DNA from: Selaginella tamariscina
Taxonomy: Eukaryota > Streptophyta > Lycopodiopsida > Selaginellales > Selaginellaceae
Assembly: GCA_003024785.1 (NCBI GenBank)
Contig: PUQB01000068.1
Location: forward strand, 1 to 64,000
Direction: 5' to 3'
Length of the DNA: 64,000 bases
Below, one piece after another: positions 1-58,941 of the stretch. Made by a program: the position numbers and the translations under genes. The notes under the pieces were generated by a model. It was not told the DNA's origin and searched no databases. It worked only from the letters and a program-made list of their open reading frames with translations. How positions within the stretch are numbered: the first letter of the stretch is position 1; every line of letters starts with the position of its first letter.

Positions 1-1854
1 CTAGATCCCTCCACTGAACCTGAACTCTCAACAGGGCCATCTGTTTTTTGTGCAGGTTGCTGACAATGCCTCTCATATTCCCAAGTAGCCTCAAGTGCAA
101 ATGTGTTCATGAGAGCATTATGTAAAGGTTGAAGGTGTTGTTTCTTCACTTTGAGATCACTGATAGGACTTGTCTGTGAGTGGGCTTCAAGGTTTCTGAA
201 ACACATGGCTAACGACCCAATAGTGAAATTGGAGTCGCTAGACCAATGTGGAAGTGAAAAGTGTCCATATGACTCACAACCGTGTCCATGTGTTAGCACA
301 CCTGTCAATGAAATCGGAAGTTTCATGACATTTCCAAGGCACTTTGGTGTTGCAAAGAGCTTTGGAATGCTGGTCTTTGAATGATCCATCTTGTCATGGA
401 TCAAGCACAGGTACTCTGATGGGCATGACACAGAAAGCATGCGTGTGCATAGTACTGAGACCGGCAAGTTTGTTGTGCAATCATGTGGGCCTCCATCTTC
501 CTTTGAACGGTAGTGATCTCCACCAAGGTTTTTGCACAAGCCTCTGCAGCCTTCAATGATGTACAAGTGTCACACTTAGAAAAGCTAGAGTGTTTTGCAA
601 TCTCCACATCCTTAAAATGAGTATTCCATATGTTGTTGAAGGTACCAGTGCAGATTGCTTGGAGCCCCATCAAACTGAGGCACTTGTTCACATGTTCACA
701 CAGTTTCAATTGAGTGTAGATTGAAGGTAAAACCTTGAGATTTTCCCTGACCCCTGCATTTGTGGTTCGGCATTTGTGAGGCATCCTGTCTGCATTTGCT
801 TCCACAAAAGCCTTGAGTATCTCTATGGCTGCCATGATGTGAGAGCGGGTTTTGACCAAGCCAGTGTTCCCATGAACTGAGGTTCGCGCTCCATCTAGCC
901 ACTCATCCCTCCGACGGTAGAACGTGGTCTTTGGGATCCCGTATATACTGTACCAAGCTTTGAAGCAGATGGCCACCTTATTAAATACCATGGATGTACT
1001 CTGATAACCTGTGTCCGAGGCCATTCCATCAATACACCCAGTTAGTGCAGCATATACAAACTCATGCCTTTGCTTTTGGGTGAGCATACGAAAGACATGT
1101 CTACATTGGGTAATTTCATTCCGGTCTGCCATCTGACAACACTTCTTCTTGCAACAGTCAATCGTGGAAATGCTCGTAACACTTTCGGAAGATGTAGGAT
1201 CCATCTTTACCCTCTTGCTGAAACTTGCAGGGGAAGATCTACAACCCATGAATCGCCTTTTTCTTACAATAGGACCAATGCAAGGAACCTCTTCAAATAT
1301 GAGTTGTTCTTCCGGGTTGTTATTATTGAAATCCAACCCAGAATATGTTGAACCATCTTGCCGTCTTAATTCAGATGTTCGCCACCTCACGAGGGATCCA
1401 GGATACAATGTGCCATTAGGTGAAACCTTGTCACAACTACACCCACGAAGTCGGACCCTAGTTTCTCTTCTGACACTGCTTCCATTGGATTTATAGCTGT
1501 GATGATGCCTCTTCCGACTTCAATCTCACGAAGAAAGAGAATCACCTCATCCATTACAGCAGGCAAGCCATCATCTGGTAAACTCGTGCTACTATTTGTT
1601 TATGACTCTGCATATTCTGTGTCAGCCTTGACTTCATCCAAATTCCACAATACAGGAGAACCCTCCTCAAATTCCATTCCCAGAACCTCAACATACTTGT
1701 AAATGGTGTTCACCCATACGTACACACAAGATCCTTGGGCAATATTGTGACATGATGCATTATTATCTCGAACTTCCACAGTTCCAGTGCCAACTATCTC
1801 GTTGTTCCGAAGAAGACATACTTTATCTCCAGTATTAAACATATTGTCCTGCAC
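1..1854 (-). pseudogene. DUF7869-type transposon protein, N-terminal part (copy A, cut by window edge)
   Basis: The leftward gene begins near 1854 (MQDNMFNTGDKVCLL) and continues beyond position 1. The first about 100 residues carry a small domain beginning KVCLLRNNEIVGTG, like the N-terminal module of some plant transposon proteins. A basic linker and a Cys-rich, probably DNA-binding segment follow (CCKKKCCQM, later KCDTCTSLKAAEACAKTL). The right-hand copy (51948-55078) includes the C-terminal domain with VGHTHEDIDAFF, the signature of the DUF7869 family, which is common in transposon-borne genes of non-seed plants and invertebrates. The frame breaks near 1425, where copy B has two extra bases, and again near 500-730. 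It is therefore probably non-coding as it stands. The N-terminal 84 codons are open here but broken in copy B. Confidence 0.7.
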
Positions 1855-1992
1855 ATAAATAATTGTATTATTTATGATATCTGTTTATGCAATATTTTAA
1901 GAAATCTGAATTACGGTTACTTAATAATATGCATATGCAATAATACATAATTATGTTTAGAGATAATATCTCATGTTTGATTAATACAACTG

Positions 1993-2556
1993 ATGGGCGG
2001 GATTAATCCCGCCCACGAATCCCTCCGACGAGGAACGGTCGGCGGGATTAATCCCGCCGCCGACTCAACCCTTCGGAGAGAGTCGGCGGGATTAATCCCG
2101 CCTTGGACTCCCTCCGACAGGAAGAGCCGGCGGGATTAATCCCGCCGCCTCTTCCCGGGGGAGTCCGGCGGGATTAATCCCGCCCACAATTCTTACGACG
2201 GGAATGGGTGGCGGATTAAACCCGCACATAACTCTCTCCAAAACTATGATTTCAAAGAGATCTCGGGATAAATCCTGTCCCCAAATCTTTAAAACAGGGA
2301 AGTGGTGGCGAGATTAATCCCGCCACCCCTTCCCTGCCTCCTAAAATGGTTGGCGGGATTAATCCCGCCGACAACTCTTTTAATAAATTCTGGTAACTCT
2401 TCATCAGTTGAGAAGGTTATCGACGGGATTAATCCCGCCACTCTTTTTCAGTGGCGGAGAAGCATTGCCCGGGAGATGGTGGCGGGATTAATCCCGCCAC
2501 CTCTTCGAAGAGGCCAAAAAGAAATGGCCGGATTAATCCCGCCGGCCCGGTTAACC
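1993..2556. repeat. Palindrome array 1A (GGCGGGATTAATCCCGCC units)
   Basis: About 12 units of the perfect 18-bp palindrome GGCGGGATTAATCCCGCC or close variants, spaced roughly 40-60 bp apart. The array begins about 140 bp upstream of the leftward transposase-like start. Spacers are not identical to each other, but short flanks (for example CTCCCTCCGAC) recur. The side nearest the transposase is almost perfect and the far side carries more substitutions (GGCGAGATT, GACGGGATT, GGATAAATCC). Because each unit is self-complementary, it creates the same short peptide (GGINPAA or GLIPP) on both strands, so open frames here are artefacts. Confidence 0.93.
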
Positions 2557-2736
2557 TAGAATATTAAGTTAAAAGGATATTTAAACGGGATAAATCCCTA
2601 ACGGAATATATTATAATCCTAATGCATTCCTAAACCCCTAAATTGTAATTTTAAGAGAGAATGTAAGAGAGTGAATCTTTATAAGTATTTTTAAATTTGT
2701 TTATAATACTTACTTGTAAACAGCACTGAAGGCGCC

Positions 2737-2970
2737 GTGCTTTCCTATAAAAATAGCACCCAATTTAATCTCGCCCCTGAGATGATCACTATGAAGAAAA
2801 AAGAAGATCTAAAGAGTGAAAAATACAGAAATGAAGAAACCCTTGCCGGAGAAAGAACCAGATCTGAATTTGAGTGGGAAATTAAATGCATTTTCAAATT
2901 TACATGTCAGACCGACAATACATATGTCAGAAATTCAAATTTTTTAAAAAGAACAGAAAATAAAATTTAA
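2737..2970 (+). CDS. Small conserved open frame, 77 aa, unknown
   Basis: I do not recognise this protein. It is charged (KKKEDLKSEKYRNEE, then GERTRSEFEWEIK) with a single Cys near the end and no signal peptide or membrane segment. The same frame is kept open in copy B at 56090-56323, where the main change is KNSTQFNLA to KEYTQFNLA. The copies have several indels elsewhere, so preservation of this frame is mildly suggestive. Both copies may simply be recent, however. It could equally be the remains of a larger exon. Confidence 0.25.
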   Translation: MLSYKNSTQFNLAPEMITMKKKEDLKSEKYRNEETLAGERTRSEFEWEIKCIFKFTCQTDNTYVRNSNFLKRTENKI

Positions 2971-4137
2971 GATGAGTTGACACAAATATCCGACACTCTG
3001 ACATATATACTCTCCAGTTCCAATGAGTATTTTAAAATTGCATTTAATGTTATTCAAGTGATTCAAGCTGTTTAATATTACGAAATTTTAGACTATATTC
3101 TACATTCTTAGTATTCAAGTATATTTATATTATATATATATATATAAATATACTTATACAATAAATAAATTGATATATTATTATGTATCATTTAAAATAT
3201 ATTCATAGTCTGTTTATTATTATTATTTTCTTAATTACTCGAGTATTTAGTTTTCATTTCCTAGTATCAATGGGATATTCTTTAATATTTTATTAATATT
3301 TGAAGAATATTCTAATATTAAACCTGATTATCATAATTAAATTAGTCTTGTTCTTAATTATTGCAGTAATTATTCTACATTTGTATATATTAATGGGATT
3401 TTCTCAATTAATTTGTTATTATTTCAAGAATATTCATGTGTTAAACCTTATTATCAATATTAAATTAATACACACTATGAACATATTTTAAATTATACAT
3501 AATAATACATCATTTTATCTAATATATAGTCATATATAGTTTTAATAATATATATATTAATATCATTTCCTTAACTTGAGTAATTAATCTTCTTTATATT
3601 AATGGGATATTCTTTATTATTTCTTATTATTCCAAGAATATTCCAATATTAAACATGATTATGATAATTAATTTAGTTAATTATTTGAGTACTTAATTTA
3701 CATTTGTATATATAATGGGATTTTCTCAATTAATTTCTTATTATTTCAAGAATATTTCAATGTTAAACCTTTTTATCAATATTAAATTAATATATATTAT
3801 TAAAACTATATATGGCTATATATTAGATAAAATCATATATTATTATGTATAATTTAAAATATGTTCCTAGTGTGTTTATTAATATTATTTTTTAATTATT
3901 CGATGTTTGTTTTGCACACATATATAAACACAATCATAAATTTACACACGCATTACAAGAACTTACAAAAACACATATGCACACACATGCACAACCCTAA
4001 ACCAAACTGAAGAAATAGGTTGCTTCTTTATTGAAAACATCATGTTCAACGCATGTATGATATATGTACTCAATCTGTGTGACTGTATGTAACACATTGA
4101 ATTTACATGTGTAATATTTATATTAAGCTTGTTGGGA

Positions 4138-4168
4138 GCAAACCCTAAACCTAAACCCTAAACCCTAA
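4138..4168. repeat. Interstitial telomere-type repeat
   Basis: AAACCCTAAACCTAAACCCT followed by AAACCCTAATA: about four plant telomere units (TTTAGGG on the other strand), one with a missing C. The matching place in copy B (57494-57525) has a longer and cleaner run plus additional runs downstream. Confidence 0.9.
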
Positions 4169-4759
4169 TATGTAACACAATGAATTTACTCATGTAATAT
4201 GTATGTATGTCTGTGTGTATACACGTGTGCATGTATATATGTGTACTCTGTATGTATATATGTGTACTTTCTGTCTTCTCTCATACATACACACCATGCA
4301 TGATCCATGTTAAATGTACTGTCTCTCTTCTCTCAAACATATACACCATGCATGATCTATAATATGTACTCGGTCTCTCTAATATTATGTACTAATATGT
4401 GTGTATGTCTGTGTGTATACACGTGTGTATGTATATATTATGTGTATTAATATATGCAATGTGTATGTATGTATTGATACACATGAAACTTTAACACTCT
4501 CATGGACACACACATGTTAAATCCCTGCATGATTTATATTTTTGAGGTGTATGTGATACACCCACGCACACGCACGCGCTAATAATATAATGAAAGAATA
4601 TTCGTTTAGGGCGAATCTATATTTTATTCTTTTTAGGGTTTAAGTATATTCTCAGAAGGAATATTCTATTAGGGTTAATATATATATTTAATTCCTTTAG
4701 GGTTTAGGTATATTCTTAGGGTTTCAAGAGGCGGCGGCTGTGAAATCGGCGGGCGGCTG

Positions 4760-5071
4760 TGCACACAGGTGAGATCTGTGTGTGTGTGTGTGTGTATGTA
4801 TGTATATATGTATAGGAGTGTGCGTATAAATTTATTTATTAGTTTTATCTCTCGCACACACACGCACACTCCTGTGTATGTATATGTGTGTGTGGGTGTG
4901 TGTTTGTTTATCTGTATGATTTTATTTGTTTCGCTCACACACGCATACACACGATATACATATACACATATATATATATACCTATATACATATATACATA
5001 CATATATTATGTGTACCAGTATCTGTAAATTTTTTTTATTGATCTATCTCTCCCACACACACGCACACTGC

Positions 5072-5134
<63 letters not shown>

Positions 5135-5199
5135 TATGTGTACCAGTATCTGTAAATTTTTTTTATTGATCTATCTCTCCCACACACGCGCACTGCTTT

Positions 5200-5237
<38 letters not shown>

Positions 5238-5935
5238 CAATGCATATTAACAAATAGTATACAACACTAGTTTATATATATGCTTATATATTCATATGGG
5301 TTATATATCTATATACACACATATATATATGTGTGTGTTTATCTGTATAATTTTATTTATTTATTAGTTTTATCTCTCGCACACACACGCACACTCCTGT
5401 GTATGTATATGTGTGTGTGTGTGTTTGTTTATCTGTATGATTTTATTTGTTTCGCTCACACACGCATACACACAATATACATATACACATATATATATAC
5501 CTATATACATATATACATACATACAACACTAGTTTATATATATGCTTATATATTCACAGACTCTCTCTCTTTCTCTATAGATTATATATCTATATACACA
5601 CATATATATGTGTGTGTTTATCTGTATAATTTTATTTATTTATTAGTTTTATCTTTCGCACACACACGCACACTCCTGTGTATATATATGTGTGTGTGTG
5701 TGTTTGTTTATCTGTATGATTTTATTTGTTTCGCTCACACGCATACACACGATATACATATACACACATATATATACCTATGTACACACATATATTAGGT
5801 GTACCAGTACTGTATAATTTTATTTATTTATCTATCTCTTGCACACACACGTACACTCCTATACATACATACATACATACATATATATATATATACAACA
5901 CACATATATATGTGTGTGTTTTTCTCGCTAAGCCC
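4760..5935. repeat. CA/TG/TA compound microsatellite block
   Basis: Long (CA)n, (TG)n and (TA)n tracts are embedded in a higher-order tandem repeat of roughly 190-330 bp. Each unit contains ATCTCTCGCACACACACG, CACTCCTGTGTATG, GTTTGTTTATCTGTATGAT, and TTTCGCTCACACACGCATAC, repeated at about 4850, 5040, 5165, 5380, 5650 and 5840. Open frames through it (for example 4769-5155 and 5280-5798) encode only HTHTH/YIYIY low-complexity peptide and are not genes. Confidence 0.9.
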
Positions 5936-6020
5936 TCGAGCGGCGGGATTAATCCCGCCGCTATAGGTTTATAGCCTCGGCGGCGGGATTAATCCCGCCG
6001 CTATATGGTTGGGGCCATGG

Positions 6021-6172
6021 CGGCGGGATTAATCCCGCCGCCGAGGCCCTTCACGCAGGCTATGGGCGGCGGGATTAATCCCGCCGCTCTACGACAAACC
6101 GAAGAGCGGCGGGATTCATCCCCCGCCCATAACCTGCGTGAGGGGCCTCGGCGGCGGGATTAATCCCGCCGC
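6021..6172. repeat. Large inverted repeat inside palindrome array 2
   Basis: The arm at 6021-6090 runs unit, GAGGCCCTTCACGCAGG spacer, unit. It is complementary to the arm at 6103-6172, where the spacer reads as CCTGCGTGAGGGGCCTC. The loop is about 12 bases around ACGACAAACCGA. The right arm carries small changes (GGATTCATCCCC). It could extrude as a hairpin of about 70 bp whose arms themselves contain palindromes. Confidence 0.8.
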
Positions 6173-6949
6173 TCACCCATGCCCTGCGCGGAATGCGGCG
6201 GGATTTATCTCGCCGGCAATGGCCTGTGTGAAGGTTCTAATGGGCGGGATTAATCCCGCCGGATTCCGCGCAGGGCATTTACAGGGGATGGGCGGCGGGA
6301 TTAATCCCGCCGCCGAGGCCCTCACGCAGGCCATGGGCGGCGGGATTAATCCCGCCGCTCTTCGTTGTCGCGGCGGCGGGATTAATCCCGCCGCCCAGGG
6401 AATTCACGCAGGACATGAACGGCGGGATTAACCCGCCGCCAGGCACTTCCGCAGGATAATAAGCGGCGGGATTAATCGGCCGCTCATCCGGCTATTACCG
6501 GGTTGCTCCCCGCCCGCCCCCACCCATCCCTGTTCAAAATGCCGCAGCCAATATATATGTGTGAGCGCATGATTTACGAGAGGGCGGCGGGATTAGTCTC
6601 TCCGAACCTTCATTACCCGGTGGCGGGATTAATCCCCACCTTCTTTTCCTCCATTGGTATGTTGAATCAATCCCGACTAACTCTGTCTGAGACGGAGAAG
6701 GTTTACAAAATACCAATGGAGGGAACTGAGAAGGGTGGTGGGATTAATTTCACCATCCCTTACATGGTGGGCGGGATTAATCCCGCGCGTACGCATGCCC
6801 TGCGCGGAATCGGGCGGGATTTATCCCGCCGCCATTGGCCTGCCTGAAGGGCCTAGGCGGCGGGATTAATCCCGCAAGATTTCGCACAGGGCATTGGCGT
6901 TCGGCGGGATTAATCCCGCCGACTAAGGCCCGAGTGAAGGGCCTGGGAG

Positions 6950-7095
6950 GCGGGATTAATCCCGCCGGACGCCAATTCCCTGCCGGAATCGGGCGGGATT
7001 ATCCCGCCGCCATTGGCCTGCTGAAGTGCCTAGGCGGCGGGATTAATCCCGCCCGATTCCGCAGGGAATTGGCGTCCGGCGGGATTAATCCCGCC
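6950..7095. repeat. Second large inverted repeat inside array 2
   Basis: The arm at about 6950-7012 (unit, GGACGCCAATTCCCTG, unit) is complementary to the arm at about 7033-7095, where the spacer reads CAGGGAATTGGCGTCC. The loop is about 20 bases. One unit in the left arm has lost a single A from its centre (GGGCGGGATTATCCCGCC). The outer spacers on each side (CGAGTGAAGG) are in direct, not inverted, orientation. Confidence 0.8.
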
Positions 7096-7570
7096 GCATA
7101 GGGACCGAGTGAAGGCCTGGCGCGGGATTAATCCCGAGTCTTCAATGCCTGTTGGAGAATGAGTCGGACCAATCCCAAACGTTTCTGTCTGAGACGTAGA
7201 AGGTTTACAACATACCAATGGAGAGAATGGGAAGGGTGGGGAAATTCATTTAACCATCCCTTACATGGTGGGCGAGATTAATCCCGCCTCCTTTCTGGAG
7301 TCACTGAAGGGGTGAGAAATAAATCCTGCCCAGTTCTCTCTGAGACCGAGAAGGGTGGCAAGATTAATTCCGCACTCCCGTTCAAGGCCTCCAGAAAGGT
7401 GGCGAGATTAATCCCGCCCACTCTTTCAGGAGGCATTGAAGGGGTGGCGAGATTAATTTCCATGTGAATATATATGTGTATTAGTATATATAAGTTGCAT
7501 ATCTCATTTTATTTACTTTTATCATCTTATCATAATATTTCGAGTAAAAGCTAGGAATCTATGTAAAACT

Positions 7571-7649
7571 GTCCAGAGCTCACATTTGTGGTGGTTCTAA
7601 AACGAAATGTTATCTTTCTTTTGCACTAACACAAATGTGAGCTTCGGAC
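7571..7649. repeat. 20-bp inverted repeat upstream of the ParB-like gene
   Basis: GTCCAGAGCTCACATTTGTG at 7571-7590 is complementary to CACAAATGTGAGCTTCGGAC at 7630-7649, with two mismatches and a 39-base AT-rich loop. It is the only strong hairpin between the palindrome array and the ParB-like start at 7795. It may be an element end, a promoter hairpin or a small inserted element. There is no flanking duplication that I can see. Confidence 0.7.
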
Positions 7650-7794
7650 AGTTAATTACGTCTACTTCTCTCTGTGTATTATTTTTGTATATTCGGGTTT
7701 ATACAAGTGTGTGTGCGTTTTTATATAATTTATTTATAGTGTATTATTTTGCAGAAGGACGATTTGATCAAACAAGGAGATCGAGTCATTAGTA

Positions 7795-10700
7795 TGGAGT
7801 CGTCGTCAAATTCTGGGTAAGAATTAAAATAAAATCTGTTATACTCGGATACTTGAACTAATCATTTTTGTATTCAGATGTGGAATTGAGGTGACATTAA
7901 AGACAAGAGCAGGAGAAGAGATGGGCAGGGGGATTCTGGAATCAACTTGGCCATATTTTAAGATAAATGGGAAGCGCATTGGAGCAACCATGGTTGCTGT
8001 CAAATTAACCTCTGTCACATCTCATGGACAAGCAAAACAATGGAAAGTAGATTCGCTAGTCAAGCACCCGAAAGCAGGCTGCGAACCCAGATTGGACGAT
8101 GCTCGACAGATATGCCTTGTTCCATCCAATGTCACGTTCTCGGATCCAGAGGTCGTCAGTTACAACATTAATTCGGGTGGTTTTGTCGACTTGTGGATAA
8201 TGACGTTCACGTGTTCACTAATGATGTTGACCTTGGAGTTCTTCTTCAACTCAACGAAAGCCCATCTATGGAGGGGATCCATCTGGATGTCTACTTCGAA
8301 GATCTTCAGACTCATCGAGTAGGTGTATTGTCAGGAGATATTGCTTCACAATACAGAAAATCAGCAAGTGGAGCAATCTTCCCTCTTCACATTGAAGAAG
8401 AACACAGCGACATCATAAGGAGATTGAGAGGGTGGCTCGGTCTCAGGTTCTCTACAGATCACGTTCAATTTGCTTAGGAAGCTTCGGGAGCTGGAAGAGT
8501 GTGCCGAGAACACTAGAACAGCTGCAGTCGGGGATCACACATGTTGATTCGGATCGCAAAAGAAAATCATCAATCGTTTTGTCAGCTGCACCTGTGGCAT
8601 CTCATGCTGCAATAAGTCACAAGGAAATGATGTTGGATGATAAGATTTATCCTTGTAGGGTTAAATATTGCAGCGTCAACCCAAACTTCAATTACAGGCC
8701 ACTCAACCAGGAACGTGTAGCTGAGCTCATGGAGAAGATGAAGGACGACAATTCTTATACCGTTCCACATAATGCTGTTTTGTGTCCATACTATGAAAGA
8801 AGGAAGGGTGCTGACAAAGTCTGGATCACAACACCAGAACAACTCATGAAGATTCAGACGGAGAATAAATCTATCAAGTACTACATCATTAGTGGCCAGC
8901 ACACAATAACGGCAGCCCAACGACTTCTCGATGAACACAACAAAGGAACGATGGCAACAAAACTTTCCGAGCATACCCGTGAGAAGCTGACAAAAAGATC
9001 GGCGTTTTTAGCTAAGCCGAATCTCACAATCGAGCAGTACCATAAGTTATCGGCGGAATGGGACGCTGCCGACACCAACCACTACAACAGCAAAATATGG
9101 GAGAAGTTTAAACACACGCGAGCCGTGTGGGAATCTCTTCAGCGACCACAAAGAGCTACCGCAGGGAATACACAATCTGCGGAATACCGGGTAAGCAAAT
9201 TGTTTGGGCGGGATTTATCTCGCCGGTATATTAATCTGTCTTTTTCCTCAGAGAGTTGAAGAAATTGCAGCAGTTGATTTTGCCCAGGTGGGCGGGAAGG
9301 AAACATCATTTCTGATGATGTTGATTTCTTGCCCCGAAGATAGGATCTTTGCCAAATGGTTGGGGATTATGGAATCCTTTTCAAAAGGAACACTGAAGAA
9401 GAAGCAGACAAGTGAAGGGGAGCCCTCAGAAAAGTCTGCAAAGAAACCCAGTAAGACGCCGAAGGCTAAGTCTGTTCAATCTACAAAGGATGTAGACAAC
9501 GATTTCAAGCTCACATGGTTGAAGCCTTTAAATGGAACAACGATGGAGGAGATGGAAGTCTTGGCTGATTTGGTGATCGATGGCAAACTACAAATTAATA
9601 ACAGCAGCCCAACCTCTCCTTTTCATCTCAAGGCAATGGAGTTGAAGACGGTCAGGCATTTCAAGGAGTGGTTGGGAATACACTGCCACAAACTGGGTTG
9701 GACCTCGACTTCAACATATGAAGAGGTTAGCAAATATTTGCATGTGACGAACGATGATATGCTTGTCGAATGGGTGAACCAATCGGAAGATCTAGGCAAG
9801 AATCTATTGCACGCCAACGCCAAAAAGGAGAACATTGGGATGACGCCTTCTCTTATGGCAGTCCTTCAGCAGCGGAGAACCGAATTGAACCTTATAAAGG
9901 AGGATGCTACGAATCACGACAAGCCCTACAGATGTTTGTTGTTAGATTCGGAGACTTTATGGGGTAACATCACTGCTTGTAGGAAACCGTTTCAATTGTT
10001 CGTGATGGATCGGCGGGTGTCAAAAAATCTTTCGACAGATAGGGCACTAGAGGATCTGGTGGAGAAACTTAGCCGTGCAAGCATATACATAGAAGGTATT
10101 TATTATTGAATTCATGCTTGCGCTCTTCACTGATACCTACTTTTTCAGGTATTTATTTCTTGATTCTTGCTCATGTCACCGATACTTTTGCCTTCGCCTT
10201 CGCCAAGAAGAATAGACATCGTTGGACAGGATTTTATATGAACGATGCTAATCCCAAGTGCATTGATACTGTTGTTCACTTGGTTGTTAGGAATGCGCCA
10301 AACAATTTCAAGCTTCCAAATGACTGGCCAGGCATCTGTTTGCACTCCAACGGCCCTGAACCTCCATCCGATACACCGATAGGTATGAGTGACGTATTCG
10401 GCAATGTACGTTATCCAAACATTACAAGTCAAGCGGCACGGAGCATCGTCAACTTGATCAGGGGTCCTCACAGTGATGCGTGGGTTTTTGACTACTGCAC
10501 TAGGGGGTCCGTCTTGAAGGAGTGTTACCTTCGGCATACATGTGTGTTTGCCGTTGAAAGGATAAGACCATGGTTGAGGACCTGAACAAGTGGATAGATT
10601 GGGTCTCAACTGAGTACCCCAACGAATCCATAAAGGCGTATTTGAGAAAGTTCCCTCCAGATAAGTGCGATAGCTCTGAAGGTGAATCTGGTTCAATCTC

Positions 10701-10797
10701 GGAGTCTGAGAACGAACTCAATCAGATATTAGACCGGAAGTTATCTCGAGGAGTACAGAACATTCGCACACTCCAGGACCCATGGAAACATCAATAG
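7795..10797 (+). pseudogene. ParB-like / methyltransferase-like protein of the accessory unit (frameshifted)
   Basis: Exon 1 begins at 7795 (MESSSNSG) and splices at GTAAG to 7879 (CGIEVTLKTRAGEEMGRG). The N-terminal part loosely resembles the start of the DUF7869-type gene. A middle segment (about 8640-9000) reads NYRPLNQERVAELMEKMKDD, then YYIISGQHTITAAQRLL. This is the arrangement of a ParB-like N-terminal domain, where a GQHR-type motif binds nucleotide; here it is GQHT. Canonical short introns follow at 9191-9251 (containing a diverged array palindrome) and 10096-10148. The C-terminal part (10150-10560) ends with WVFDYCTRGSVLKECYLRH then CVFAVE. Its shape resembles methyltransferase motif I and the following strand of N6/N4 amino-methyltransferases (D-x-F-x-G-x-G, later igiE). 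No DPPY/NPPY catalytic motif is evident. Frame shifts occur near 8185, 8440 and 10570. ParB-methyltransferase fusions are known from phages and bacteria. The reading here is an inference at moderate confidence for ParB and low for the methyltransferase. Confidence 0.5.
9191..9251 (+). other. 61-bp intron carrying one array palindrome
   Basis: The donor is CGG^GTAAGC and the acceptor TTCCTCAG^AGAGTTG. Splicing joins EYR to RVEEIAAVDF in frame. Positions 9207-9224 read GGCGGGATTTATCTCGCC, a diverged copy of the array palindrome (same variant as at about 6188-6215). It is the only copy I see outside the arrays. Confidence 0.75.
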
Positions 10798-11148
10798 AAG
10801 ATGCAGAAGATCTTGAACCATCTCACAAGCGGCTTAGACCTTCTTCGCCTCATCAGAAGGTAATAGCGAAGAAGAATTGATAATGAATTGATAGAGTGAT
10901 GAATAGTTGTAAATGAGTGTAACATAAGGCATTTTTGTATATTTCTTTTATATTTGTACAGAAAATAAATTCTCAAGGATTAATGAAGCTTTTAGTTCAA
11001 ACATGGGTCACACATTAACAAGGTAAATAATATACCTTGATAATTTTAAGGTCAGCTAATTATCATTTTGCAGATGTAATGAAATAATTGAGAACATGGA
11101 TTTTCAGCATTGCCATGAGGTAAGAGAGGGGTTTGGCGACAATTTCTT

Positions 11149-12335
11149 GTGCCACATGTCAGAATGACAGAGTTCATGCAGGAAATGGATAATAATGCAG
11201 CTCAAAACATCGTTACCATGGGGGCCACTTCAGTTTTTGCATCATCATTTTTATTGGCTTCAGTTCCGAAATCAATTTCTTCAGCGCATGCAATATCTGA
11301 ATCTTGTAAGGATGATGTACAATTAAATGATGAAGGGATAGGCAACGAAAGTGGCAACGGATAAATGTGAAAGGGAGCAAACAAGTGATTTGCAAAGTAT
11401 TCAAGAGGCAACGCTATCTCATGTTACTCATGGCCATATTGTGTTGTTGGATGTCAATGGTGTTCTGCTTCATCGACAAAGGCCCAGGATAGAAAAAAGA
11501 AATCAAACAAGGAGATTTCATTCCTTGTCATGGTAAATTTCGATATGATATTATTTTTCGTCCAGGGTTGGATCGTCTCTTTCAAAAGCTTAAGGAGATG
11601 GGTGCGCTTGTGGGGATTTGGTCATGCATGCAGATTCATAACTTAACACCGCTGTTGAGTTTACTTAAGAAACATTGTAGTGTTGCAGAAGAGGTGATTC
11701 GTAAAGATTGGATTTTTGACCAGCGAATGTGTCATAAACCTCTCGAATTTCACAATATAAGAAAGGAAAGCAAGCCATACTTCTTCAAGAATGAAAGAAT
11801 AATTGGGACTCATGGGGAGATCAGTCGCTTAAGGATAATGAAGAATGCACATATCTTAGTAGTAGACGACTCTCCTCAGAAGGCTATGCTCAACCAAAAC
11901 ATTGCTTGTATTCATCCAATCACTTTCGATCCATATTCTGATACCGATATCATGGATGAGCTAGTGAACTACTTGGATACGTGCCTCAGAAAGAAGAATC
12001 TCGAAAATTTTTGTGAGCAGTATCCACCGTATCATACATTTCCTGAAGCTTTTCTTTCTCGTGATATTGAATTTTATAAAATGAAGGATAGCAACCGGGC
12101 GCTTTATAATATTATTCTTAAGGAACGTCAGTTTTTAGATGAGCCTTTATGCAGACCTTCTCTTATCACATCTTATGTATTAACAAGGATGGCAACTCCC
12201 AATTGCATTCGTGAGAGTGTTAAGTGGTGGCAACAACATCAAGATATTGACCAAAATGATTTGATTAATCCGGAGAGTGATGATTTAGACAAAATGAAAA
12301 GATTTCTTTGTATGATAGAAAGAAAGTATTTATAA
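11149..12335 (+). pseudogene. FCP1/NIF-type HAD phosphatase-like protein (frameshifted)
   Basis: The reading frame around 11440 contains IVLLDVNGVLLHRQ, the plant-type HAD motif I (D-x-N-G; many plant FCP1-like members have LDLNG). The frame continuing from about 11500 has FRPGLDRLFQKLKEMGALVG, then IWSCMQ, and ILVVDDSPQKAMLN, the motif IV DDSP-K region. The gap between the two frames falls in AGAAAAAAGAAATC (six A at 11493-11498). One extra or missing A there would join them. The 5' part also changes frame near 11345-11360, so the true start is uncertain. The C-terminal 120 residues (to RKYL at 12335) carry no domain I recognise. FCP1-like proteins dephosphorylate phospho-Ser/Thr such as the RNA polymerase II CTD, but no substrate can be inferred here. 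It lies 350 bp beyond the ParB-like gene and could be cargo of the same unit or a host gene. Confidence 0.6.
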
Positions 12336-13530
12336 AAAATTAACATGTTGATAAGAAAATGATTTCATTTGTAATTATGTTTGATAGTATTTCTTCATTA
12401 TTGTAAACTATTTTTAGAATAATATGAATATTCTAAGATATTTTAGGAATATTCCTTACTAAGTAAGGTTATTGAAGGATTAATTAATTAATTAATTAAT
12501 ATTTAAGGCTTAATTACATATTAATTAAATGATTAATTAATAATTAAAACTTAAGTATTAATTAGTAATTTATTTTATATTCCCATTTTCACGTATCATG
12601 CCCACTTTAGTTACAACGTGCATATGATCATGCAATTATTTCATATATATAATCTCCAAACCTAAAAAGAGAAATTGTATTTTTTATTTGAAACTATATG
12701 TCACATAGTTTAATTTAAAATGATGTATTAAAATATTATATTTTATTAAAAATTATATTATTAATTTATAAAATTAATTAATAAAATAAATTAAAATTAA
12801 TTAGATTTATAAATTCATTATTAAAATATTTAATTACATTATTAATTTATAAAATTAATTACTAAATTATAAATTAAAATTTAATTAGATTTATAAATTA
12901 CATTATTAAAATATTTAGTTAGATTTATAATTACATTATTAATTTATAAAATTAATTTATATAAATTAAAATTTGATTAGATTTATAAATTATGAGTTAA
13001 AATATGTTAATTTAATTTTAAAAGATTGTTATGTTCAACTGTAAATTTCGCCACTAATTTAAACATAAAACTAAAATATATTCAAGTTATATATTTTATT
13101 TATTATTAATAATAGTAATGTTTTCTAGTTTCTTTAGGTGTTATATTTACAAAGATTCTTTAAAATTTATAAATATTTAGTTTTAGATCTTATAAAAATT
13201 TATGTTAAATTCAGCTTAAAACTTAACTTGAGAACTTTATTATAAAAAAGTGTACATTTACTTGTTAATGATCTAAAGTTGAAGAAGATTTTCTAGATTT
13301 ATCATTTTTCATATTTAATATTCTCATTAGCTTCCAACATTAAAACATGAACCTATTTAAACATAATATATTATTAGCATTATTCAAACCCTTATTATTA
13401 TGTATTTTCTTAAGAAATTATATATTATAAGAAATAACTTATTAAGTTTCTAGAATATATAGATTAATAATGTATTTTTATATATATATATTATAGTTGT
13501 TTTTACTTATTCAAATAACAACCTTGCAGC
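12336..13530. other. AT-rich intergenic stretch
   Basis: Dominated by TTAATTAATTAA at 12480-12500 and by two near-identical blocks of about 95 bp (TTATTAATTTATAAAATTAATTA at 12770 and 12840, again at 12940). No gene, RNA or clear element end is visible. Confidence 0.6.
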
Positions 13531-18804: not shown

Positions 18805-27507
<8,703 letters not shown>

Positions 27508-33153: not shown

Positions 33154-33200
<47 letters not shown>

Positions 33201-51399: not shown

Positions 51400-51947
51400 T
51401 CTTAGAACTGTCGTAGCTACTGTAGAAACATTGCGAAGTTTGCAGCGGACTTATTCATCTCTTTCAGTGATGCAAGTTGTAACTAAAATGGGCATTGCTA
51501 TAGTCCCATTTCTTAATAATTAGCAATTTTAGCTATTTAATTAGCATTTTCTAATATTAAAGGAATATTCTTTAGAATATATGTTTGAAAAAGAATATTC
51601 TTTAGAATATTCTATTTTGTATTCTACCCTTTAATACATTATAAAAAATATTAATTATTATAATATATTATATAATATATTGCCTAATATAACAATTAAG
51701 GAAGAGCATAAGAGGTACATTATATAAATATTGATGTTGTTATTAAAATATTAATATTTAAATATAACATTATTAATTAAAAATTTGTAGTAGTAATAAT
51801 ATATATATAAATCCTATAATAATATAGTCAATCTTCCATATCATTTTTTAAATTTATATAGTTAAGTATACAATTTGGTACTATTATTAAAGAGTTTATA
51901 ATAATTATGAATATTAAATATATGATATTTTTAATTTTGTAATTGCT
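51400..51947. other. AT-rich non-coding DNA
   Basis: Very AT-rich with TTCTTTAGAATAT repeats near 51570-51620. No gene is seen. It could be an intron or the 3' flank of the transposase gene. Confidence 0.5.
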
Positions 51948-54900
51948 TTAAGCTTCAGAAAACATACATTCCCTTGCAGTTTTGTTAATCGTGACTTTAT
52001 CAACGCTTCTTGACATCCACCCATATCGAATGGATTTAACATTTATAAAACATGCTGGGTCTTTTTGATTGGGAGACCATGTTTTCTCTAGGCATCCATT
52101 ATATCTTTCGCTCTCCTTCTCGTGTCGCCTTTTTTGTGGTTTGAACCATGCAACCTTAACAATACTATTTTTTGTGATTACTTCAGGTGTGTCGATAATT
52201 TGACCCATCCAAATAGGCTGATTATATGACGCATCTGGAGTAATGAGAACCATCATTAGTTTTTGAAGATCCTTGCAGCAATCAAAGTATGCTTTAGGTT
52301 TTTGGTTCCTTTGTCCAACAAAGTGTGGGGTTTGCACTTCCACATCACTACTGGCTTCTATGTCGTCTGTGCTCAGTGATGTCATTTCAATCTCCTCTCG
52401 CCACCTTGTTTTAGGCCAAAAGGGTGTTGCAATTCTGTACTTGTGACAGTAGGCCCTTCCAACTCTCGAACAACAGTCTCCCAATAGTTGACCACATGCT
52501 TATATAGTTCTGAGTAACCAGTTGCCTTATCAGAATTCTTTGGCATCGATTTTTGAACCCATGCCACATATTTTTTGATGCCATCAATAATAACCTCTTG
52601 TTCCTTGAGCTGGGCACTCAATGGAATAGGGTCTGGTTGTCCTTCTGGGAGAAGTGGCTTTCCATCCTCTCCACTTTTGAAGAGCATTAAGCCCTCTTTC
52701 GGTAACCACTCCTGCTCTGATGGCCGTAACTTGTACTGCATAATAGGTATACCATCTCGTATGGAGAAAAAGAATTGTAGCGGCACAAGGTGACCAACTA
52801 AAGAATCACTCCCTTCTTTTATATACTCCTTGAGAAATTTTTTGAAGTCTGGCACCTCAGTCACAAGCAAAGCACAACTTTTTTTGGAGATGCAATTTTC
52901 AAAAAGATTCATCATATGCGGTAAGGTAAGTGCACTTGTCCTTTTTGTAGAGTTGGAGACCTTGCTGAAGAACGCATCAATATCTTCATGAGTGTGACCA
53001 ACCATAAGGAAACTGAGCGTGATTGTTTCAAACACACCTTTGGCAACAAGCATTGACAAGTATGCTAGCACATATCTAGAAAATAAAAGTAAGTATGAGC
53101 TTGAGAAACCCTTAAGTAAAATGATTTACCTATTTTTGTTCTCGCCTGCACAATTATCCATCTGTAAAAGCAAATGACGAGGAAGCTTATTTGATGTTGA
53201 GGACACATGTACACTATTTGAGCTAGATCCCTCCACTGAACCTGAACTCTCAACAGGGCCATCTGTTTTTTGTGCAGGGTTTGACAATGCCTCTCATATT
53301 CCCAAGTAGCCTCAAGTGCAGACGTGTTCATGAGAGCATTATGTAAAGGTTGAAGGTGTTGTTTCTTCACTTTGAGATCACTGATAGGACTTGTCTGTGA
53401 GTGGGCTTCAAGGTTTCTGAAACACATGGCTAACGACCCAATAGTGAAATTGGAGTCGCTAGACCAATGTGGAAGTGAAAAGTGTCCATATGACTCACAA
53501 CCGTGTCCATGTGTTAGCACACCTGTCAATGAAATCGGAAGTTTCATGACATTTCCAAGGCACTTTGGTGTTGCAAAGAGCTTTGGAATGCTGGTCTTTG
53601 AATGATCCATCTTGTCATGGATCAAGCACAGGTACTCTGATGGGCGTGACACAGAAAGCATGCGGTGTGCATAGTACTGAGACCGGCAAGTTTGTTGTGC
53701 AATCATGTGGGCCTCCATCTTTTTGAATGGTAGTGATCTCCACCAAGGTTTTTGCACAAGCCTCTGCAGCCTTCAATGATGTACAAGTGTCACACTTAGA
53801 AAAGCTAGAGTGTTTTGCAATCTCCACATCCTTAAAATGAGTATTCCATATGTTGTTGAAGGTACCAGTGCAGATTGCTTGGAGCCCCATCAAACTGAGG
53901 CACTTGTTCACATGTTCACACAGTTTCAATTGAGTGTAGATTGAAGGAAAACCTTGAGATTTTCCCTGACCCCTGCATTTGTGGTTCGGCATTTGTGAGG
54001 CATCCTGTCTGCATTTGCTTCCACAAAAGCCTTGAGTATCTCTATGGCTGCCATGATGTGAGAGCGGGTTTTGACCAAGCAGTGTTCCCATGAACTGAGG
54101 TTCGCGCTCCATCTAGCCACTCATCCCTCCGACGGTAGAACGTGGTCTTTGGGATCCCGTATATACTGTACCAAGCTTTGAAGCAGATGGCCACCTTATT
54201 AAATACCATGGATGTACTCTGATAACCTGTGTCCGAGGCCATTCCATCAATACACCCAGTTAGTGCAGCATATACAAACTCATGCCTTTGCTTTTGGGTG
54301 AGCATACGAAAGACATGTCTACATTGGGTAATTTCATTCCGGTCTGCCATCTGACAACACTTCTTCTTGCAACAGTCAATCGTGGAAATGCTCGTAACAC
54401 TTTCGGAAGATGTAGGATCCATCTTTACCCTCTTGCTGAAACTTGCAGGGGAAGATCTACAACCCATGAATCGCCTTTTTCTTACAATAGGACCAATGCA
54501 AGGAACCTCTTCAAATATGAGTTGTTCTTCCGGGTTGTTATTATTGAAATCCAACCCAGAATATGTTGAACCATCTTGCCGTCTTAATTCAGATGTTCGC
54601 CACCTCACGAGGGATCCAGGATACAATGTGCCATTAGGTGAAACCTCTGTCACAACTACACCCACGAAGTCGGACCCTAGTTTCTCTTCTGACACTGCTT
54701 CCATTGGATTTATAGCTGTGATGATGCCTCTTCCGACTTCAATCTCACGAAGAAAGAGAATCACCTCATCCATCACAGCAGGCAAGCCATCATCTGGTAA
54801 ACTCGTGCTACTATTTGTTTGTGACTCTGCATATTCTGTGTCAGCCTTGACTTCATCCAAATTCCACAATACAGGAGAACCCTCCTCAAATTCCATTCCC

Positions 54901-55078
54901 AGAACCTCAACATGCTTGTAAATGGTGTTCACCCATACGTACACACAAGATCCTTGGGCAATATTGTGACATGATGCATATTATCTCGAACTTCCAAGTT
55001 CCAGTGCCAACTATCTCGTTGTTCCGAAGAAGACATACTTTATCTCCAGTATTAAACATATTGTCCTGCACATAAATA
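51948..55078 (-). pseudogene. DUF7869-type transposon protein (copy B, full span)
   Basis: This is the complete leftward gene. It starts near 55078 (DNMFNTGDKVCLL), runs through the Cys-rich middle (KCDTCTSLKAAEACAKTLVE at about 53790) to MDNCAGENKN (about 53130-53162), an intron with GTAAAT...CTAG ends, YVLAYLSMLVAKGVFETITL, and FLMVGHTHEDIDAFF (52970-53006). It ends with the basic C-terminus (FKPQKRRHEKES) and stop near 51950. DNC-ENKN plus VGHTHEDID is the core of DUF7869, presumed to be the nuclease-like part of a transposase; its acidic residues are intact. Frame breaks lie at about 54965 and 54995 (one- and two-base losses against copy A), near 54080, 53945, 53720 and 52430. Copy A is broken at different places, so a working ancestor existed. 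Introns indicate it was expressed as a eukaryotic gene. Confidence 0.8.
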
Positions 55079-55209: not shown

Positions 55210-55903
55210 ATGGGCGGGATTAATCCCGCCCACGAATCCCTCCGACGAGGAACGGTCGCGGGATTAATCCCGCCGCCGACTCAACCCTTCGGAGAGAGTC
55301 GGCGGGATTAATCCCGCCTTGGACTCCCTCCGACAAGGAAGAGCCGGCGGGATTAATCCCGCCGCCTCTTCCTCCTCGGGGGGAGTCCGGCGGGATTAAT
55401 CCCGCCGACTCTCTCCGGCGAGGATGAGTCGGCGGATTAATCCCGCCGGACTCCCCCCGAGGAGGAAGAGGCGGCGGGATTAATCCCGCCGGCTCTTCCT
55501 TGTCGGAGGGAGTCCAAGGCGGGATTAATCCCGCCCACAATTCTTACGACGGGGAATGGGTGGCGGGATTAAACCCGCACATAACTCTCTCCAAAACTAT
55601 GATTTCAAAGAGATCTCGGGATAAATCCTGTCCCCAAATCCTTAAAACAGGGAAGTGGTGGCGAGATTAATCCCGCCACCCCTTCCCTGCCTCCTAAAAT
55701 GGTTGGCGGGATTAATCCCGCCGACAACTCTTTCTAATAAATTCTGGTAACTCTTCATCAGTTGAGAAGGTTATCGGCGGGATTAATCCGCCACTCTTTT
55801 TCAGTGGCGGAGAAGCATTGCCCGAGAGATGGTGGCGGGATTAATCCCGCCACCTCTTCGAAGAGGCGAAAAAGAAATGGCCGGATTAATCCCGCCGCCC
55901 CGG
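55210..55903. repeat. Palindrome array 1B
   Basis: About 15 units of GGCGGGATTAATCCCGCC or variants, starting about 135 bp upstream of the transposase start, as in copy A. Units near the transposase are almost perfect; distal ones carry the same substitutions as in copy A, so these predate the duplication. Confidence 0.93.
55301..55535. repeat. 110-bp-arm inverted repeat within array 1B
   Basis: The left arm 55301-55410 and right arm about 55426-55535 are near-perfect reverse complements. Each holds three palindrome units and two spacers: GGACTCCCTCCGACAAGG against CCTTGTCGGAGGGAGTCC, and CTCTTCCTCCTCGG against CCGAGGAGGAAGAG. The loop is about 15 bases. One G is missing from the first unit of the right arm. 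Copy A has only the left arm (about 2080-2186) and joins directly to the sequence after the right arm. Confidence 0.9.
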
Positions 55904-56089
55904 TTAACCTAGAATATTAAGTTAAAAGGATATTTAAACGGGATAAATCCCTAACGGAATATATTATAATCCTAATGCATTCCTAAACCCCTAAATTGTA
56001 ATTTTAAGAGAGAATGTAAGAGAGTGAATCTTTATAAGTATTTTTAAATTTGTTTATAATACTTACTTGTAAACAGCACTGAAGGCGCC

Positions 56090-56323
56090 GTGCTTTCCTA
56101 TAAAGAATACACCCAATTTAATCTCGCTCCTGAGATGATCACTATGAAGAAAAAAGAAGATCTAAAGAGTGAAAAATACAGAAATGAAGAAACCCTTGCC
56201 GGAGAAAGAACCAGATCTGAATTTGAGTGGGAAATTAAATGCATTTTCAAATTTACATGTCAGACCGACAATACATATGTCAGAAATTCAAATTTTTTAA
56301 AAAGAACAGAAAATAAAATTTAA
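56090..56323 (+). CDS. Small conserved open frame, 77 aa (copy B)
   Basis: Same frame as 2737-2970 with few amino-acid differences (KEYTQFNLA for KNSTQFNLA). It is Lys/Glu-rich with no known domain. It is listed only because both copies stay open. Confidence 0.25.
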   Translation: MLSYKEYTQFNLAPEMITMKKKEDLKSEKYRNEETLAGERTRSEFEWEIKCIFKFTCQTDNTYVRNSNFLKRTENKI

Positions 56324-57493
56324 GATGAGTTGACACAAATATCCGACACTCTGACATATATACTCTCCAGTTCCAATGAGTATTTTAAAATTGCATTTAA
56401 TGTTATTCAAGTGATTCAAGCTGTTTAATATTACGAAATTTTAGACTATATTCTACATTCTTAGTATTCAAGTATATTTATATTATATATATATATAAAT
56501 ATATACTTATACAATAAATAAATTGATATATTATTATGTATCATTTAAAATATATTCATAGTCTGTTTATTATTATTATTTTCTTAATTACTCGAGTATT
56601 TAGTTTTCATTTCCTAGTATCAATGGGATATTCTTTATTATTTTATTAATATTTGAAGAATATTCTAATATTAAACCTGATTATCATAATTAAATTAGTC
56701 TTGTTCTTAATTATTGCAGTAATTATTCTACATTTGTATATATTAATGGGATTTTCTCAATTAATTTGTTATTATTTCAAGAATATTCCTGTGTTAAACC
56801 TTATTATCAATATTAAATTAATATATATTATTAAAACTATATATGACTATATATTAGATAAAATGATGTATTATTATGTATAATTTAAAATATGTTCATA
56901 GTGTGTATATTAATATCATTTCCTTAATTACTTGAGTAATTAATCTTCTTTATATTAATGGGATATTCTTTATTATTTTCTTATTATTCCAAGAATATTC
57001 CAATATTAAACATGATTATGATAATTAATTTAGTTAATTATTTGAGTACTTAATTTACATTTGTATATATTAATGGGATTTTCTCAATTAATTTCTTATT
57101 ATTTCAAGAATATTTCAATGTTAAACCTTTTTATCAATATTAAATTAATATATATTATTAAAACTATATATGGCTATATATTAGATAAAATCATATATTA
57201 TTATGTATAATTTAAAATATGTTCATAGTGTGTTTATTAATATTATTTTCTTAATTATTCGATGTTTGTTTTGCACACATATATAAACACAATCATAAAT
57301 TTACACACGCATTACAAGAACTTACAAAAACACATATGCACACACATGCACAACCCTAAACCAAACTGAAGAAATATGTTGCTTCTTTATTGAAAACATC
57401 ATGTTCAACGCATGTATGATATATGTACTCAATCTGTGTGTATGTAACACATTGAATTTACATGTGTAATATTTATATTAAGCTTGTTGGGAG

Positions 57494-58077
57494 CAAACCC
57501 TAAACCCTAAACCCTAAACCCTGTGTATACATGTGTGTACAAAAATAATTTTTCAACACTCTCTCTTCACACCATGCATGATCCATCCTAAACCCTAAAC
57601 CCTAAACCCTAATATGTAACACAATGAATTTACTCATGTAATATGTATGTATGTCTGTGTGTATACACGTGTGTATGTATATATGTGTACTCTGTATGTA
57701 TATATGTGTACTTTCTCTCTTCTCTCATACATACACACCATGCATGATCCATGTTAATATGTATTGTCTCTCTTCTCTCAAACATACACACCATGCATGA
57801 TCTATAATATGTACTCGGTCTCTCTAATATTATGTACTAATATGTATGTATGTCTGTGTGTATAATACACACCATGCATGATCCATAATATGTACTGTCT
57901 CTCTTCTCTCATATACTATGTATGTATATCTGTGTATAATATGTGTAAGTATATATGTGTACTAATATATGCAATGTGTACAAAAATAATTTTTCAACAC
58001 TCTCTCTTCTCTCATACATACACACCATGCATGATCCATCCTAAATCCAAAACCCAAACCCTAAACCCTAAACCCAT
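57494..58077. repeat. Interstitial telomere-type runs
   Basis: Three separate AAACCCT runs: 57494-57523 (four units), 57587-57612 (about three and a half) and 58040-58077 (degenerate, with AAATCCAAAACCC). They are separated by TATGTATGTCTGTGTG and CATGCATGATCC tracts. Copy A has one run at the matching place. Confidence 0.88.
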
Positions 58078-58604
58078 GTAATATGTATGTATGTCTGTGT
58101 GTATACACGTGTGTATGTATATATGTGTATTAATATATGCAATGTGTATGAATTTAATACTTTAACACTCTCTCTCTTCTCTCATGCATACACACCATGC
58201 ATGATCCATGTTAATATGTACTGTCTCTCTTCTCTCAAACATACACAATATGATCCATAATATGTACTCTGTCTCTTTAATATTATGTACTAATATGTAT
58301 GTAATGTCTATGTGTATAAAACTATGTGTGTATGTATGTATTGATACACATGAAACTTTAACACTCTCATGGACACACACATGTTAAATCCCTGCATGAT
58401 TTATATTTTTGGGGTGTATGTGATACACCCACGCACACGCACGCGCTAATAATATAATGAAAGAATATTCGTTTAGGGCGAATCTATATTTTATTCTTAC
58501 TCTCAGAAGGAATATTCTCTTAGGGTTAATATATATATTTAATTCCTTTAGGGCTTAGGTATATTCTTAGGGTTTCAAGAGGCGGCGGCGGCTGTGCACA
58601 CAGG

Positions 58605-58611
58605 TGAGATC

Positions 58612-58642
<31 letters not shown>

Positions 58643-58905
58643 ATATGTATAGGAGTGTGCGTATAATTTTATTTATTGATCTATCTCTCGCACACACACG
58701 CACACTCCTGTGTATATATATGTGTGTGTGGGTGTGTGTTTGTTTATCTGTATGATTTTATTTGTTTCGCTCACACGCATACACACGATATACATATACA
58801 CACATATATATACCTATGTACATATATACACACATATATTATGTGTACCAGTACTGTATAATTTTATTTATTTATCTATCTCTTGCACACGCACGCACAC
58901 TGCTT

Positions 58906-58941
<36 letters not shown>

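What the first reader, a model, noticed from the sequence alone, without database searches (positions are those of the whole stretch)
1993..10797. Divergent gene pair with arrays of one 18-bp palindrome at both 5' ends: candidate new mobile system
Seen: a DUF7869-type transposase-like gene (leftward) and a ParB/methyltransferase-like gene (rightward) are separated by about 6 kb holding two arrays of GGCGGGATTAATCCCGCC (12 and about 30 units). Each array begins 140-330 bp from one gene start. Known: ParB proteins in bacteria act on clusters of palindromic parS sites, and transposases bind repeated subterminal sites. Inference: the palindromes are repeated binding or structural sites for one of these proteins, in a large element carrying its own segregation- or methylation-like factor. 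I know of no described plant system of this form.
Basis: partly seen in the sequence, partly recalled or inferred. Interest (0 to 1): 0.92.

Follow-up and report, generated by a model that had tools for sequence, protein, structure and literature searches.

The report
Giant plant transposon carrying palindrome arrays
The repeated 18-letter palindromes belong to a roughly 14-kb jumping DNA element that is repeated many times in this plant genome, and they sit in clusters in front of its two outward-facing genes, probably as docking sites for a protein that the element itself makes.

Summary
GGCGGGATTAATCCCGCC forms arrays at 1996-2543 and 5942-7457, and a third at 55213-55896 in a second copy of the same element. 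The element is a TIR DNA transposon of about 14 kb: TIR, DUF7869 gene, array A, spacer, array B, ParB/methyltransferase-like gene, NIF/FCP1-like gene, TIR. In the window's 300.7-Mb assembly the 18-mer occurs 27,128 times and the 20-bp terminus 3,018 times. All 10 regions holding the 100 listed 18-mers also hold these genes, 9 of 10 in this order. TGCA stands one base outside 15 of 16 ends. One copy interrupts the ParB-like gene of an older relative. In array A the TTAA centre is kept at 126 of 126 anchored half-sites while spacers diverge, which favours a protein reading the whole palindrome over independent E2F-type half-sites. A ParB-like/methyltransferase gene opposite a Sola1 transposase was already reported in Ectocarpus; palindrome arrays at both gene starts I did not find in print. 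The ParB call is inconclusive here, the methyltransferase call not supported (DPPY motif missing).

The parts
1..12618 (.). Copy 1 of the element (left end lies outside the window)
   Evidence: 98% identical to copy 2 over 1-2225; right TIR at 12598-12617
1..1842 (-). DUF7869 transposase-like gene, 5' part, frameshifted in this copy
   Evidence: Pfam DUF7869 on copy-2 exons
1996..2543 (.). Array A: 10 units of the 18-bp palindrome, starting 154 bp from the DUF7869 ATG
2560..5930 (.). AT-rich, then TG/AC-rich spacer between the arrays, with short tandem repeats
5942..7457 (.). Array B: 20 units with up to 2 mismatches (27 with up to 4), spacers differing from those of array A
7794..10880 (+). 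ParB/methyltransferase-like gene with introns, frameshifted in this copy
   Evidence: near-identical copies genome-wide
9207..9224 (.). Single palindrome unit (GGCGGGATTTATCTCGCC) in an intron of the ParB-like gene
11164..12335 (+). NIF/FCP1-like phosphatase gene (PF03031, 6.9e-09), inside the TIRs; start codon is my reading
12598..12617 (-). Right TIR of copy 1, GTTGTAACTAAAGTGGGCAT on the - strand, one base from TGCA
51476..51495 (+). Left TIR of copy 2, GTTGTAACTAAAATGGGCAT, one base from TGCA
51948..55059 (-). DUF7869 transposase-like gene of copy 2
55213..55896 (.). Array A of copy 2, 12 units with up to 2 mismatches; also a large imperfect inverted repeat
55911..59510 (.). Spacer of copy 2, ending at 59510/59511 where a Ty3-like retroelement seems to begin

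Best explanation
This is a recently amplified TIR DNA transposon, 11.8-14.4 kb in the five two-ended copies seen, Sola-like in several traits. It encodes a DUF7869 transposase-like protein, a divergently transcribed ParB-like protein with a degenerate methyltransferase-like half, and a NIF/FCP1-like phosphatase. The element, its gene order and the array positions are shown; the ParB, methyltransferase and RNase H names are inferred. The arrays lie in front of both divergent genes and act as a multi-site docking platform for a dimeric DNA-binding protein that reads the whole 18-bp palindrome. The most likely binder is the element's own ParB-like protein (about 0.5), next the transposase (about 0.15). 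Occupancy would regulate both promoters and mark element copies as self, as multi-site accessory factors such as TnpA of En/Spm do (recalled). Binder and function are inferred.
For: 27,128 exact 18-mers, 0 of the reversed control. The 10 regions that hold all 100 listed places were fetched; 10 of 10 hold DUF7869- and/or ParB-like sequence, 7 of 10 all three genes, 9 of 10 in the same order. The terminus occurs 3,018 times exactly, control 0. TGCA stands one base outside 15 of 16 ends. One copy is nested in an older ParB-like gene, whose joined flanks align across the junction with the young gene. Array A starts 153-155 bp from the DUF7869 ATG in 9 of 10 copies measured; the tenth gives 137 with an estimated start. 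Arrays A and B share the 18-mer but not the spacers: TTAA is kept in 126 of 126 (A) and 123 of 151 (B) distinct anchored half-site contexts, while the commonest base in flank columns reaches only 0.29-0.79. In an alignment of the DUF7869 query with 19 of its 69 relatives, D484, D639, D679 and D681 are invariant. Precedent of a ParB-like protein opposite a Sola1 transposase: PMC12477816, passage.
Against: No binding data. No Pfam or NCBIfam match to ParB or methyltransferase; the best PHROG hit of the ParB part is ParB-like but at E = 0.22. Against phage profiles, 149 of 5000 shuffles reach the ParB score and 444 of 5000 the methyltransferase score. Array units arose by duplication, so part of the core conservation may be shared ancestry. 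In array B 10 of 102 intact half-site pairs lack TTAA. The sites of the older relative were tested with a motif chosen after looking at that region. One region (C1_2048501) is rearranged, DUF7869-like fragments outside the young element of C1_310001 have no 18-mer array in the fetched stretch, and one listed 18-mer (C1:2071485) lies about 1.3 kb outside the nearest element end.
Confidence: 0.55

Rival explanations
1. The palindromes are host transcription-factor sites, most plausibly E2F/DP: GGCGGGA-TTAA-TCCCGCC is an inverted pair of TCCCGCC elements that couple element transcription to S phase.
For: TCCCGCC is named as an element recognised in vivo by E2F factors in PMC5464667 (passage). Amplification of E2F sites by transposons in Brassica is the title of a cited paper (Henaff 2014; seen only in the reference list of PMC7385995). 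The arrays are promoter-proximal. In array B 10 of 102 intact half-site pairs have another centre.
Against: E2F needs no TTAA centre, yet TTAA is kept in 126 of 126 half-site contexts of array A, and per base the centre is at least as conserved as the facing half-site in array A (1.0 against 0.88-0.99) and similar in B (0.89-0.99 against 0.82-0.98). Genome-wide a TAAA centre with near-intact half-sites occurs 1,689 times against 27,128 exact for TTAA. The older decayed relative shows no exact TCCCGCC in the listed sites.
Confidence: 0.17
2. The arrays are binding sites for the DUF7869 transposase, used in synapsis rather than transcription.
For: Repeated sites in a transposon next to the transposase gene.
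Against: In the two-ended copies the arrays lie several kb from either TIR near the two gene starts, and the terminus pattern is not found in them.
Confidence: 0.15
3. The arrays are self-propagating inverted repeats without a dedicated binder; their hairpins (DNA or RNA) are inert or a source of small RNAs.
For: Array A of copy 2 matches its own reverse complement at 89% over 55258-55578 and folds with z = -30. Copy 1 lacks part of this repeat.
Against: The same 18-mer recurs in array B at similar median spacing but with other spacers, which a purely structural constraint would not require.
Confidence: 0.1

Closest known systems
Sola1-1_Ec32 of Ectocarpus (PMC12477816, passages seen)
   Same: Giant DNA transposon (21.5 kb) with a 1,104-aa ParB-like + DNA methyltransferase protein on the strand opposite the transposase; the authors suggest that such proteins may bind and modify their own transposon.
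   Different: No palindrome array appears in the passages I saw. Here the host is a plant, a NIF/FCP1-like gene is added, the methyltransferase catalytic motif is missing, and the protein is too divergent to be placed by profile.
Sola superfamily of DNA transposons (PMC10741241, passages)
   Same: DDD transposase, 4-bp target duplications, some elements over 15 kb, known in Physcomitrella; the highest-ranked relative of this DUF7869 protein that bears an organism name is from Physcomitrium patens.
   Different: No Sola reference transposase could be compared here.
Mariner elements with methyltransferase genes in giant viruses (PMC3627910, passages)
   Same: Transposons that carry a DNA methyltransferase gene.
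   Different: Other superfamily; the passages name no ParB-like domain and the term ParB does not occur in that text.
En/Spm (CACTA) with TnpA (recalled, no paper read)
   Same: Accessory protein thought to act on many repeated sites near the promoter.
   Different: CACTA termini and subterminal site position; here the sites are central and the transposase-like gene is DUF7869.
Bacterial ParB-parS (recalled)
   Same: Clusters of palindromic sites next to a ParB-like gene.
   Different: Eukaryotic transposon; a ParA-like gene was not searched for; the GERR-type motif position reads SGQH; no partition role shown.

Membership tests
TIR DNA transposon | Matched terminal inverted repeats at both ends of several copies | tested here: met
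   24 of 26 between the window copies; 3,018 exact termini; 5 of 10 fetched regions have both ends, 11.8-14.4 kb
Sola superfamily | 4-bp target site duplication | tested here: inconclusive
   TGCA at both ends in 4 of 5 two-ended copies, beside 15 of 16 ends; because the target is always TGCA, duplication cannot be told from target choice, and the one empty site is too decayed to decide
Sola superfamily | DDD transposase | tested here: inconclusive
   Invariant D484, D639, D679, D681 in 20 aligned DUF7869 sequences; no structure prediction was available
Sola superfamily | Transposase sequence similarity to reference Sola elements | not testable with these tools
   No Sola reference sequence was at hand
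DUF7869 (PF25273) | Pfam score above the curated cut-off | tested here: met
   95.4 bits against 26; 69 relatives at E <= 0.01
ParB N-terminal domain (PF02195) | Significant profile match | tested here: inconclusive
   No Pfam hit; PHROG ParB-like E = 0.22; 149 of 5000 shuffles reach the score against a phage profile
N6/N4 DNA methyltransferase (PF01555) | Significant profile match | tested here: not met
   No Pfam hit; 444 of 5000 shuffles reach the score against a phage profile
N6/N4 DNA methyltransferase (PF01555) | Catalytic DPPY-like motif | tested here: not met
   The corresponding stretch, placed by eye, reads VMDRRV in the majority reading of 9 copies and in a less damaged copy
ParB-parS partition system | Specific binding of ParB to the palindrome; ParA partner | not testable with these tools
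   No binding data; a ParA-like gene was not searched for
CACTA (En/Spm) | CACTA/CACTG termini (recalled) | tested here: not met
   Termini are GTTGTAACT...

The most novel reading that the evidence does not exclude
A eukaryotic transposon that carries its own parS-like system: its ParB-like protein recognises the whole 18-bp palindrome, loads at the arrays of every copy, and spreads or clusters over the element to keep its two promoters active against host silencing. The array sequence would diverge together with the protein between element families.
Probability: 0.15. Interest if true: 0.9.

Novelty: new variant of a known kind. Interest (0 to 1): 0.62.

Why it matters
ParB-like/methyltransferase accessory genes have been noted in algal transposons, but the passages I saw give no target site. 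Here a plant element offers an explicit candidate target: one 18-mer, 27,128 copies in the assembly, placed in front of both divergent genes in the complete copies examined. The idea that a transposon binds its own DNA with a captured prokaryote-type protein becomes directly testable by gel shift or DAP-seq. If a host factor binds instead, the element has spread tens of thousands of its sites through the genome, which would matter for gene regulation.

Tried and rejected
Homologues of the ParB-like protein: none at E <= 0.001 by whole length (the 7,998 candidates sharing most words scored) or at E <= 0.1 by the ParB part (237 candidates) in a database of about 5.8 billion proteins; none confirmed in viral contigs; none by tblastn in phages. 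DUF7869 in viral contigs: 29 pattern matches, none confirmed. The 18-mer in prokaryote contigs (49 stretches) and viral contigs (1) was taken as unrelated short palindromes and not followed. No convincing PDB relative of the ParB part (2 hits, best E 0.81).

Considered and rejected: a bacterial contaminant (introns; PPR, condensin and MYB genes in the window); a plain tandem satellite (spacers differ between arrays); chance. The unit profile was biased toward perfect cores by its search and is replaced; only its spacings are used. One search found perfect arms of only 13-32 bp, so the large inverted repeat of array A is imperfect.
Full report
OBSERVATION. The palindrome GGCGGGATTAATCCCGCC is present as described. 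With up to 2 mismatches there are 43 matches and none in 100 shuffles: 10 at 1996-2543, 20 at 5942-7418, one at 9207 and 12 in a third array at 55213-55896. With up to 4 mismatches there are 52 units. The third lies in a second copy of the same element: window 1-2225 matches 53223-55446 at 98%, and similarity continues to about 5900/59510, where a retroelement seems to begin in copy 2 (by eye).

ELEMENT ENDS. A 26-bp inverted match (24 identities) links 51470-51495, left of copy 2, with 12598-12623, right of copy 1. The terminus GTTGTAACTAAA[A/G]TGGGCAT, with up to 3 mismatches, occurs only at these two places in the window. In the window's own assembly (G000, 300.7 Mb, 1,391 contigs) it occurs 3,018 times exactly, with 0 for the reversed control. 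If all these ends were paired this would be about 1,500 elements, and at about 13.5 kb each roughly 20 Mb or 7% of the assembly. That is an extrapolation, since many of the copies seen are incomplete.

The 18-mer occurs 27,128 times exactly, 0 for the control. That call listed only the first 100 places, all on contig C1. I fetched 10 regions (20 stretches) that hold all 100. In 10 of 10 regions DUF7869-like and/or ParB-like coding sequence lies beside the arrays. All three genes are found in 7 of 10, and the phosphatase-like gene in 8 of 10. In 9 of 10 the order is TIR, phosphatase, ParB-like, array B, array A, DUF7869, TIR, or its reverse, with parts missing in incomplete copies. The tenth, C1_2048501, is rearranged: a ParB-like fragment on the same strand as, and next to, a DUF7869 fragment. 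One listed 18-mer (C1:2071485) lies about 1.3 kb outside an element end. DUF7869-like fragments at 39-51% identity lie outside the young element of C1_310001 with no 18-mer array in the fetched stretch. Five regions have both ends: 13,776, 11,844, 13,544, 13,629 and 14,355 bp. TGCA stands one base outside the terminus at 15 of 16 ends, which fits a 4-bp TGCA target or duplication. The ParB-like segment of the window found 150 scored matches, all at 99-100% identity; 150 is the number scored of 5,049 candidates, so a lower bound. Of 9 copies of that gene aligned, 5 are 99% identical to the majority reading and 4, the window's among them, 93-97%. I take the family to be young.

AN OLDER RELATIVE AND AN EMPTY SITE. 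In region C1_1802001 a young element sits inside the ParB-like gene of a decayed relative (33-63% aa identity per match). With its flanks joined, the old gene aligns with the young gene across the junction; the exact duplication cannot be read from it. So the element inserts as a unit. The old copy also carries GGGATAAATCCC-type sites upstream of its ParB-like gene and within it: 12 strand-hits at 10 sites with up to 3 mismatches, against a mean of 2.44 and maximum of 9 in 200 mononucleotide shuffles. The motif was chosen after seeing repeats in this region, so this is suggestive only.

GENES. DUF7869 is well supported (95 bits; 69 relatives at E <= 0.01, mostly without an organism name, named ones including Physcomitrium patens, Riccia sorocarpa and marine animals). 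In an alignment of the query with 19 of the 69 relatives D484, D639, D679 and D681 are invariant, as expected for an RNase H-like transposase; the fold was not modelled because structure prediction was off. Among the copies whose frames I printed (both window copies, the DUF7869 gene of C1_2070701, the ParB-like gene of C529), none was free of frame breaks beyond introns; C1_2070701 comes near for DUF7869 and C529 for the ParB-like gene. A NIF/FCP1-like gene lies inside the right TIR (PF03031). The rightward gene has ParB-like and methyltransferase-like motifs in the expected order by eye, but statistics are weak. There is no Pfam hit, and the best PHROG hit of the ParB part is a ParB-like family at E = 0.22. 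Against profiles from 8 phage proteins, 149 and 444 of 5000 shuffles reach the scores. Two of those 8 were checked by Pfam for both domains; the other six were taken by similarity to one of them. The motif IV position reads DRRV, not DPPY. If it is a methyltransferase, it is probably inactive.

THE PALINDROME. Array A starts 153-155 bp from the DUF7869 ATG in 9 of 10 copies; the tenth, 137 bp, used an estimated start. Median spacing is 44.5 bp in A and 45 in B, with more scatter (31-51) in B. Spacers differ between A and B, while the 18-mer is shared. Anchoring on every exact GGCGGGA on either strand (371 anchors, 277 distinct contexts, a perfect palindrome giving two), the next four bases are TTAA in 126 of 126 (A) and 123 of 151 (B). 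The facing half-site is exact in 84 of 126 and 102 of 151; in B 10 of those 102 lack TTAA. The commonest base in flank columns reaches only 0.29-0.79. Per base the centre is at least as conserved as the facing half-site in A and about equally so in B. This argues for a protein that reads the whole palindrome and against two independent E2F sites, although TCCCGCC is an E2F element named in PMC5464667 (passage). A TAAA-centred form occurs 1,689 times against 27,128. Array A of copy 2 is also a large imperfect inverted repeat with a very stable predicted fold (z = -30).

MECHANISM. Shown: mobile element, gene order, array position, conservation of the 18-mer across differing spacers. Inferred: a dimeric element-encoded protein, most likely the ParB-like one, docks at the arrays to regulate both divergent promoters and to mark element copies.

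KNOWN WORK. PMC12477816 (passages) reports a 1,104-aa ParB-like + DNA methyltransferase protein opposite the transposase of a 21.5-kb Sola1 element of Ectocarpus. [quoted passage not shown] PMC10741241 (passages) gives Sola traits: DDD transposase, 4-bp TSD, some over 15 kb, known in Physcomitrella. PMC3627910 (passages) reports methyltransferase genes in Mariner elements of giant viruses. No paper in the held library contains the word DUF7869. In searches joining ParB with transposon terms (20 listed of 289, 64 and 77; 6 of 6) I saw by title and abstract start no other transposon of this form; of all papers I opened only those named here and in the rival explanations. The plant was not identified; a land plant is inferred from its genes.

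VERDICT. A new variant of a known kind: a Sola-like giant transposon with a ParB-like accessory gene, new in its palindrome arrays.

Noticed in passing
window 59511-63582 and beyond: A Ty3-like LTR retroelement (RT- and integrase-like ORFs recognised by eye, not by a tool) seems to interrupt copy 2 of the element.
   Followed up: no
window 19295-23105 and 32853-35808: Inverted partial duplication, pieces 80-89% identical, overlapping the condensin-like gene region.
   Followed up: no
window 55258-55578: Array A of copy 2 is a large imperfect inverted repeat with a very stable predicted fold; copy 1 lacks part of it.
   Followed up: partly
window 7560-7655: Inverted repeat (CACATTTGTG ... CACAAATGTG with further pairing) upstream of the ParB-like gene, seen by eye.
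   Followed up: no
window 57495-57522, 57587-57612, 58040-58075: Short telomere-like AAACCCT tracts inside the spacer of the element.
   Followed up: no
L107 and L108 (G000:C1:1802001-1821600): A young element nested in the ParB-like gene of an older, decayed relative with variant palindromes.
   Followed up: partly
L027, L033, L037, L039, L049: In these loci, each a whole contig of one of two bacterial assemblies, the same 18-mer lies within about 50 bases of a contig end, perhaps a bacterial repeat at assembly breaks.
   Followed up: no
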